The notes under the pieces: model-generated
What the model was told of the DNA's origin: nothing
The model's input: the letters and a program-made list of their open reading frames with translations, nothing else
The model's database searches: none
From: Lachnospiraceae bacterium
GTDB lineage: Bacteria > Bacillota > Clostridia > Lachnospirales > Lachnospiraceae
Reading direction: 5' to 3'
NCBI GenBank assembly: GCA_022769665.1
Contig: JALEIR010000079.1
Location: forward strand, 48,066-112,065
Length of the DNA: 64,000 bases
Shown here: piece after piece, positions 31,329 through 62,539 of the stretch
How the letters are laid out: every line of letters begins with the position of its first letter
How positions within the stretch are numbered: position 1 is the stretch's first letter
Translations under genes and position numbers: made by a program

Positions 31329-32024
31329 TCAATGCACATATCGTGCATTGTATTCCTCATTGATTTCTTTAATCTCTTTCTTACCATCAATATAATTCTG
31401 GTAGATATCCCATGGAGTTCCTCCACCCAACCAGCAGGAAGAACAATTCTCGCATCCCCCACCGCCGCAATCCAAAGCTTTCCTTACAATCTCTTCTCGT
31501 TCTTCTTTGGTTGTATCCTTGATCAAAAGGCTCTTCATTTTTCGGTTCCTTTCCATGTAAACAGACGTTAGTCCTGCATCATCCGTCAGATACTCAGGCA
31601 TCGGCTTACGCTCAAATCCCAATCTCTCATACAAAGCGATTGCCTTCCCGTTATCCGGATTGGGGTCTACCCATACCTTTTCCGCGCCGTTCCGAAAAGC
31701 CTCCTCCATTGCATAGGAAAGAGCCTTGGTTGCAATGCCTTTTCCTCTCGCAAATGAGAACAACTTGATATCCATCGCTGCACTGTTTCCATGCTGGCAA
31801 TCGATTTCATAAAATGTTTCGCCACAATAAAGGTCTTCTTCAAAGATAGAATAATGATTCACCATTGGCCTTGCTGACGATATCCACCGGAACCAATGAT
31901 TCATCTCCTCATCTGTCTTGTGTAATCCATCCGGAAATCCCACAAACTTCATAACATCTCCGTCTGCCCACAATTCTTTCACATTGGATAAATCATTTAT
32001 CGTTGTTTCTCTTATTGTAATCAT
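31329..32024 (-). CDS. GNAT acetyltransferase fused to a small Cys-rich domain
   Basis: A 231-aa protein. Residues 1-163 are a GNAT fold: ITIRETTINDLSNVKELW, then LFSFARGKGIATKAL (acetyl-CoA loop) and NGKAIALYERLGFE. From about residue 163 a second module begins, MKSLLIKDTTKEEREEIVRKAL, with CGGGGCENCSSCWLGGG and a conserved-looking tail DIYQNYIDGKKEIKEINEEYNARYV. I recall that tail as a stand-alone small Clostridia protein, sometimes mislabelled PurH. The join keeps an internal ATG (31538) with AAAGGAACC before it. Start 32024 has AAGGAG. Function unknown. Confidence 0.75.
   Translation of the reverse strand: MITIRETTINDLSNVKELWADGDVMKFVGFPDGLHKTDEEMNHWFRWISSARPMVNHYSIFEEDLYCGETFYEIDCQHGNSAAMDIKLFSFARGKGIATKALSYAMEEAFRNGAEKVWVDPNPDNGKAIALYERLGFERKPMPEYLTDDAGLTSVYMERNRKMKSLLIKDTTKEEREEIVRKALDCGGGGCENCSSCWLGGGTPWDIYQNYIDGKKEIKEINEEYNARYVH
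31536..31560 (-). promoter_or_regulatory. Internal ribosome binding site and ATG for the Cys-rich domain
   Basis: GGAAAGGAACCGAAAAATG on the minus strand is a normal initiation site inside the fused gene, in frame. It would make the 70-residue C-terminal domain alone. Confidence 0.4.
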
Positions 32025-32168
32025 TTCATCAAATTCTCCTTCCTGACAACTCATATATCAGGGCAAATATCTTAAGTACCGGATGAAAGTCTTTTTTGAT
32101 TATAACATATCCTTCTTGATAATGTTAAGAAATATATGTAACAGGCAAGTCGGTTATGTAGACAGTTT

Positions 32169-61535: not shown

Positions 61536-62456
61536 CTAATTGCCTCTTTTCCAATAATTCCAATGTATCCCCTTCCCATAACCGATCTTTTCATAGAAAG
61601 GATCTCCTCCGCCGGTCATATGTGTTGCGCCCAGCGCTTTCATGGTATGATAGTGTTTTGAAAGTGCAGCAGATGCAAGCCCTATCTTTCGATATTTTGG
61701 AATTGTACAAAGCGGCTCCATATACGCAAGTTTGTTTTCCGGTACCCACCACATTCCGGAAAAACATGCATATTCCTCATTCTCATCTGCAATAATTATG
61801 TCATACTGATGTGTGGAATGAGGTGATGGCGCAAGAATAGAACCTATCACCCCCTTGAATGATTTTTCAGGAGTCCATTCAAAACTGTTATCCTGAATTT
61901 CCCAATTTTCAAAAGGGCCCTTTTCTCCATGGTTAAAACCATACCAGAAACATTTTGCCAACTTAACCGGATCAGTTTTTGCCGGTTCTACAAAATGAAA
62001 GCCATCCGGAATTTCAAAATTCAGTTCGTTCTTAAAGTCAAACTCTCTGTCTTCATAATCAAACACATTTCTGAATCCTCGTTTTGCCGCAGCTTCCATC
62101 AGAAATTCCTGTCCGTTAAATAAAATGAATTGCTGCTTATTATCGAAGTTCGGCATATTATGAATTGCATAATCAATCATTTCGTCCGCAAGATATTCGT
62201 AACCCGGACGAACCTTGAAATAAATATCCGTCACCGGTGCTTCATTAAATACGAAAGCTACAATCCTGTCGCCATCAAACCAAAATCGATTTAAATACTG
62301 ATAAGAAGTATCCATCCACGATGATTGTATCGCGTACTCAAAAAATGGAGCTGCTACTCCGCCACCTCTGTCCTTGTCATATATTTCCACAAAAAAATCC
62401 CAAACAAGATTTATATCTGTTAAAATCTGAAATTGTTTTGTAGTAATATTACTCAT
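61536..62456 (-). CDS. GNAT family N-acetyltransferase (long, two-lobe form)
   Basis: A 306-aa protein. The N-terminal half is a diverged GNAT-like lobe (FWFDGDRIVAFVFNEAP), and the C-terminal half is a complete GNAT domain: CTIPKYRKIGLASAALSKHYHTMKALGATHMTGGGDPFYEKIGYGKG. The preferred start is ATG 62456 (MSNITTKQF) with GGGAGG about 12 bases before. Substrate unknown. Confidence 0.82.
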   Translation of the reverse strand: MSNITTKQFQILTDINLVWDFFVEIYDKDRGGGVAAPFFEYAIQSSWMDTSYQYLNRFWFDGDRIVAFVFNEAPVTDIYFKVRPGYEYLADEMIDYAIHNMPNFDNKQQFILFNGQEFLMEAAAKRGFRNVFDYEDREFDFKNELNFEIPDGFHFVEPAKTDPVKLAKCFWYGFNHGEKGPFENWEIQDNSFEWTPEKSFKGVIGSILAPSPHSTHQYDIIIADENEEYACFSGMWWVPENKLAYMEPLCTIPKYRKIGLASAALSKHYHTMKALGATHMTGGGDPFYEKIGYGKGIHWNYWKRGN

Positions 62457-62539
62457 CTTTGCAATAACCTCCCATTCTAAGAACGATACAAAATTATATT
62501 TTTGCAAATTCACCATTCACATGAAGTACCAGTCCAAAT

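What the first reader, a model, noticed from the sequence alone, without database searches (positions are those of the whole stretch)
31329..32024. GNAT enzyme fused to a small Cys-rich module that keeps its own start signal
The C-terminal 70 residues with CxxxxCxxCxxC-like spacing look like a protein normally encoded separately. An RBS and ATG remain at the junction. The fusion suggests that the Cys-rich protein works with an acetyltransferase, and that two products may be made from one gene.
Basis: partly seen in the sequence, partly recalled or inferred. Interest (0 to 1): 0.5.

Follow-up and report, generated by a model that had tools for sequence, protein, structure and literature searches.

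The report
Acetyltransferase accidentally joined to small protein
In one gut-type clostridial genome an acetyltransferase gene has run into the next gene, a common small cysteine-cluster protein that is a separate gene in nearly all its relatives; the joining looks recent and incidental, but the small protein turns out to be a probable distant cousin of antitoxins that restrain Fic enzymes.

Summary
The minus-strand gene 32024-31329 encodes a 162-residue GNAT followed directly by a 69-residue CxxxxCxxCxxC protein that keeps its ATG and a usable Shine-Dalgarno. The last part is a real, unnamed small-protein family of Lachnospiraceae-type bacteria. Of about 180 members read, only three are fused: this one, and two related species with a Cys-poor paralogue fused to an isochorismatase-type hydrolase. 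The same GNAT subfamily is stand-alone elsewhere, or fused at the same C-terminal point to other domains (Nudix, a second GNAT). In all five other genomes that hold both proteins, the genes lie apart. So the fusion does not show that the Cys protein works with an acetyltransferase; it looks like a private stop-codon loss. The junction reads CGA AAA ATG AAG; one A fewer would give GNAT-RK-TGA overlapping the ATG by 4 nt. Two products are plausible but unproven: the internal ribosome site is as strong as in stand-alone relatives, yet 21% of synonymous recodings do as well. The less expected result concerns the small family: profiles link it, both ways, to VbhA-like Fic antitoxins, with the SxxxE[G/N] inhibitory motif gone and a Cys cluster in its place.

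The parts
31329..32024 (-). fused ORF, 231 aa: GNAT + Cys-cluster module
   Evidence: translation; Pfam GNAT
32036..32044 (-). ribosome-binding site of the GNAT start (AGGAAGGAG)
   Evidence: sequence; duplex energy -12.9
31539..32024 (-). GNAT acetyltransferase part (162 aa), nearest homologues 65-67% identical and in another family of the order
31546..31554 (-). internal Shine-Dalgarno-like stretch GGAAAGGAA
31535..31542 (-). junction AAAAATGA: run of five A into the retained ATG (31538-31536); the TGA at 31537-31535 is one base out of the GNAT frame
   Evidence: sequence; the stop-loss reading is inference
31332..31538 (-). module: 69-aa member of the LIKDTT small-protein family (subfamily A), retained start codon at 31538
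31434..31469 (-). Cys cluster C-x4-C-x2-C-x2-C (fusion residues 186, 191, 194, 197)
   Evidence: translation; this kind of cluster in 88 subfamily-A sequences

Best explanation
A lineage-specific gene fusion. A GNAT gene, rare in this genus, came to lie directly upstream of a resident small gene; loss of the GNAT stop codon then joined the two frames with no linker. The simplest route is one extra A in the AAAA(A)TGA junction, where GNAT would otherwise end RK-TGA and overlap the small gene's ATG by 4 nt. The small protein belongs to a widespread stand-alone family: three short helices with a Cys cluster between helices 1 and 2. This family is probably an offshoot of the VbhA-type Fic antitoxin fold in which the Fic-inhibiting motif is gone and a probable metal- or Fe-S-binding loop stands in its place. 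Most likely the cell still makes some free 69-aa protein from the retained start besides the fusion, and the acetyltransferase plays no specific part in the small protein's work. Shown: family, stand-alone state, unlinked partners, retained start, profile link to VbhA-like proteins. Inferred: how the stop was lost, metal binding, the second product, the absence of a functional link.
For: Stand-alone homologues with conserved start and RBS. GNAT homologues stand-alone, or fused at the same point to Nudix or a second GNAT. The two genes unlinked in 5 of 5 other genomes that hold both, and two genomes have the GNAT but no module. Junction sequence. Other members do overlap their upstream gene by 4 nt (L107, L109, L110, L155), and 4-nt and 1-nt overlaps are the commonest spacings in prokaryotes (PMC10666635). 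Module coding sequence conserved: 37 synonymous against 10 non-synonymous codon differences to G022. VbhA link: profile A1 finds Fic-neighbour proteins L150/L151 (E 3.2e-8 and 2.8e-5 per genome); those match Pfam VbhA at 1e-4 and 1.9e-4 and L150 sits beside a Fic gene; the reverse profile A4 finds subfamily C (3.1e-4, 4.7e-4); hhalign A2-A4 96.7%; a related C. difficile plasmid gene lies directly before a Fic gene.
Against: Direct hhalign of the module family against canonical VbhA gives nothing; the link rests on the intermediate pair A4, and Pfam VbhA is matched below its gathering score. The predicted fold found no PDB match. The reading frame is open and intact, so a useful fusion is not excluded. 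The family has one other fusion (two species, isochorismatase), so fusions are not unique to this genome.
Confidence: 0.6

Rival explanations
1. The fusion is an assembly or sequencing artefact: the real sequence has one A fewer, so GNAT stops at TGA and the small gene starts at the overlapping ATG, an ordinary two-gene operon.
For: A single base in an A-run restores a textbook ATGA overlap; every other subfamily-A homologue read is stand-alone; the genome is a 93-contig draft.
Against: A five-base run is short for a homopolymer error; the read data cannot be inspected; fusions of this GNAT to other domains and of this family to isochorismatase exist in other genomes.
Confidence: 0.2
2. A functional (Rosetta-stone) fusion: the Cys-cluster protein helps or regulates the acetyltransferase, for example as a metal- or redox-responsive domain.
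For: Intact frame, complete GNAT domain, conserved Cys cluster.
Against: No other fused or adjacent pair; unlinked in all five other genomes holding both; the GNAT is fused to different domains elsewhere.
Confidence: 0.12
3. The module is a working Fic antitoxin and the fusion carries an antitoxin on an acetyltransferase.
For: Profile link to VbhA-like proteins beside Fic genes.
Against: The [S/T]xxxE[G/N] inhibition motif is at the inhibitory-helix end in none of 173 members (2 chance matches inside the Cys loop) against 7 of 8 VbhA controls; a Fic motif was found in only 1 of the 80 GTDB loci of the family, and none in the window.
Confidence: 0.04

Closest known systems
VbhA / FicA antitoxins (Pfam PF18495)
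   Same: Short helical protein; the family's nearest outside relatives (L150, L151, C. difficile plasmid gene) are VbhA-like and lie beside Fic genes; VbhA is described as three anti-parallel helices (PMC5033356) and the module model has helices 11-22, 42-50, 56-67.
   Different: No SxxxE[G/N] motif, no linked Fic gene, Cys cluster between helices 1 and 2 in most members.
GNAT acetyltransferases (Pfam Acetyltransf_3 / Acetyltransf_1)
   Same: GNAT domain including the C-terminal acetyl-CoA-binding part; nearest solved chains are AAC(6')-Ib-like and N-terminal acetyltransferases at weak E-values.
   Different: C-terminal 69-aa fusion found nowhere else; no NCBIfam equivalog cut-off reached, so the substrate is unknown.
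Other domain fusions of the same two families
   Same: GNAT + Nudix (L131, L132), GNAT + GNAT (L130), subfamily-D module + isochorismatase (L193, L194).
   Different: Different partners, so no constant pairing.

Membership tests
GNAT superfamily | GNAT domain including the acetyl-CoA-binding region | tested here: met
   Pfam Acetyltransf_3 54.6 bits (cut-off 25.4), Acetyltransf_1 42.4 bits (cut-off 20.7)
GNAT superfamily | acetyl transfer from acetyl-CoA | not testable with these tools
   needs an enzyme assay
VbhA / FicA antitoxin | sequence-profile membership (PF18495 gathering score) | tested here: not met
   module family: no match; only the linking relatives L150/L151 match, at 1e-4 and 1.9e-4, below cut-off
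VbhA / FicA antitoxin | [S/T]xxxE[G/N] inhibition motif at the end of helix 1 | tested here: not met
   motif definition from PMC5033356
VbhA / FicA antitoxin | gene beside a fic gene | tested here: not met
   Fic motif in 1 of the 80 GTDB loci of the family; most VbhA control loci do have one
VbhA / FicA antitoxin | short helical fold and common ancestry | tested here: inconclusive
   transitive profile link; direct comparison negative; fold search negative
LIKDTT small Cys-cluster family (unnamed, defined here) | conserved I-x-D/E-T/S-T-x-E-E-R and Y-x-x-Y-I-x-G, about 64-77 aa | tested here: met
   stand-alone homologues cover the whole module at 71-86% identity

The most novel reading that the evidence does not exclude
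A large, unnamed family of Lachnospiraceae-type small proteins arose from Fic antitoxins by replacing the Fic-inhibiting motif with a metal- or sulfur-binding Cys cluster. It now serves sulfur or tRNA-modification metabolism: its genes recur beside TcdA/ThiF, rhodanese-PP-loop (TtcA-like) and one HD hydrolase.
Probability: 0.25. Interest if true: 0.55.

Novelty: new variant of a known kind. Interest (0 to 1): 0.33.

Why it matters
The fusion itself is a warning example: a retained start codon plus unlinked homologues marks a private stop-loss fusion, not a Rosetta stone. The wider value lies in the small family: conserved, often in tandem paralogues, unnamed in Pfam and NCBIfam, and plausibly an antitoxin fold put to a new use with a Cys cluster. 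That can be tested directly (metal analysis, Fic binding, knock-out next to tcdA).

Tried and rejected
PDB sequence search with the family profile: nothing. Foldseek of the module model: nothing (much of the Cys loop has pLDDT below 50). PADLOC and PHROGs: no match for the module. Viral contigs: no relative, though two phage records hold distant members. A guess from memory that such proteins are annotated as PurH found no support. A joint alignment of fusion, GNATs and modules misaligned the GNATs onto the module, so the fusion was not folded. Direct hhalign of the family against canonical VbhA was negative. Upstream open-frame extensions of other members (L047, L117, L048 and others) run past a conserved start region with an RBS and were judged spurious by eye, not domain-tested. 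Whether GNAT genes in general are enriched beside the family was not computed; three loci with a neighbouring GNAT of another kind were seen (L050, L070, L099), which I took as background.

Full report
What is there. The ORF lies on the minus strand, 32024 to 31329, 231 aa. Residues 1-138 are a GNAT acetyltransferase domain (Acetyltransf_3 E 2.5e-14); no curated equivalog reaches its cut-off, so the substrate is unknown. Residues 163-231, MKSLLIKDTTKEEREEIVRKALDCGGGGCENCSSCWLGGGTPWDIYQNYIDGKKEIKEINEEYNARYVH, are unknown to Pfam and NCBIfam.

The last 69 residues are a family. The module alone finds relatives in 11 of 61 related genomes; a profile finds 42 of 138 genomes of the genus and 21 of 391 of the class, in 10 genera (two of those matches are the VbhA-like relatives below); at least 540 places in GTDB contigs encode a relative. 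Members are mostly 64-77 aa, begin with the same (K/S)(I/L)LIKDTT and mostly have a good Shine-Dalgarno. Of 178 distinct sequences, 88 have the CX3-4CX2CX2C(x)(L/I/M)GGG cluster (A), 5 a variant (B), 22 only CxxC (C), a few no or one Cys (D), and 54 form a paralogue (E, CIADCDMCGLCKVFHGKD) that often follows A directly. Invariant positions over 43 members are not the cysteines but E13, R14, Y49, I50, G52: the Cys cluster sits on an older helical frame.

The fusion. Among these loci only this genome fuses the family to a GNAT. Two other species (G123, G074) have a Cys-poor member at the N-terminus of an isochorismatase-type hydrolase, a hydrolase that occurs in most genomes of the genus, nearly always without the module. 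The GNAT subfamily is rare: 4 of 138 genus genomes and 5 of 392 order genomes, this genome counted in both. It stands alone in G303, G138, G129 and G089, ending at YMELRKG or YMELCKEKED; it is fused to a second GNAT in G210 and to Nudix in G485 and G445, at the same point. Seven other genomes hold the GNAT: five also have the small family, always on another contig, and two have none. The pairing is therefore not conserved, and the GNAT C-terminus is simply a place where fusions happen.

The junction. DNA reads TAC ATG GAA AGG AAC CGA AAA ATG AAG AGC. Met163 is the family's start codon, so nothing was lost from the small gene and nothing inserted. One A fewer gives CGA AAA TGA, a stop overlapping the ATG by 4 nt. 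Several stand-alone members overlap their upstream gene by exactly 4 nt, and short overlaps are the commonest spacings in prokaryotes and couple translation (PMC10666635). That the stop was lost by one extra A is inference; an assembly error would look the same.

Two products? The internal site pairs with anti-SD as well as the sites of stand-alone relatives (-10.2 against a median of -9.9), but 21% of synonymous recodings reach it. Internal initiation is plausible, not shown. The module's coding sequence is conserved: 37 synonymous and 10 non-synonymous codon differences to G022; this mostly reflects time before the fusion.

Where the family comes from. The family profile built without them found L150 and L151 (E 3.2e-8 and 2.8e-5 per genome). 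L150 is followed by a Fic gene, and L151 by a reading frame that looks like the start of one. They match Pfam VbhA at 1e-4 and 1.9e-4, just under its cut-off. The reverse search with these two finds subfamily C (3.1e-4, 4.7e-4). hhalign: family against L150/L151 96.7%, L150/L151 against eight VbhA 75.4%, family against VbhA directly nothing. Related C. difficile plasmid genes are annotated 'antitoxin VbhA family protein', or lie directly before a 'Fic family protein' gene. VbhA has three anti-parallel helices, and Fic inhibition needs a [S/T]xxxE[G/N] motif in the inhibitory helix (PMC5033356). The module model has three helices and, after helix 1, the Cys cluster instead; the motif is absent, and so is a linked fic. 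I therefore call it a probable offshoot, not an antitoxin.

What it may do. Among 80 GTDB loci, within 5 kb: an HD hydrolase in 17, TcdA/ThiF in 10, a rhodanese-PP-loop (TtcA-like) protein in 6, and two of the three also in another taxonomic family (L149). This points to sulfur or tRNA-modification metabolism, weakly, since many loci are from related Butyrivibrio. In this genome the HD gene (C89) has no family member beside it.

Verdict. As a finding it is a modest curiosity; the small family deserves a name and a metal analysis.

Noticed in passing
L130 (G210), L131 (G485), L132 (G445): The same GNAT subfamily is fused at its C-terminus to a second GNAT or to a Nudix domain in other genomes.
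   Followed up: yes
L193 (G123:C13) and L194 (G074:C8): A Cys-poor paralogue of the module is fused to the N-terminus of an isochorismatase-type hydrolase in two species.
   Followed up: partly
L126 and L127: A KptA/Tpt1 RNA 2'-phosphotransferase gene starts right after the stop of the stand-alone GNAT.
   Followed up: partly
L004, L006, L023, L026, L049, L106, L110, L149: Conserved neighbourhood of the family: TcdA/ThiF, rhodanese-PP-loop (TtcA-like) protein and one HD hydrolase, in changing order.
   Followed up: partly
L044, L050, L078, L116, G022:C14: A diverged paralogue (CIADCDMCGLC type) follows the family gene closely, as a tandem pair.
   Followed up: partly
L007 (G031:C15): The family member is truncated: its frame opens only at about residue 20, so it looks like a decaying copy.
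   Followed up: no
L046, ORF of 343 aa upstream of the family gene: A large protein begins with MRSFLIKNTTKEERE, the family's N-terminus, and then continues with unrelated sequence.
   Followed up: no
window 61536-62516 (-): A 326-aa protein that resembles by eye a protein encoded next to the stand-alone GNAT in L126 and L127 (both hold ITTKQFQILTD near the N-terminus).
   Followed up: no
L166: A VbhA-like inhibitory segment (degenerate motif LQDVDG) is fused to the N-terminus of its Fic domain.
   Followed up: no
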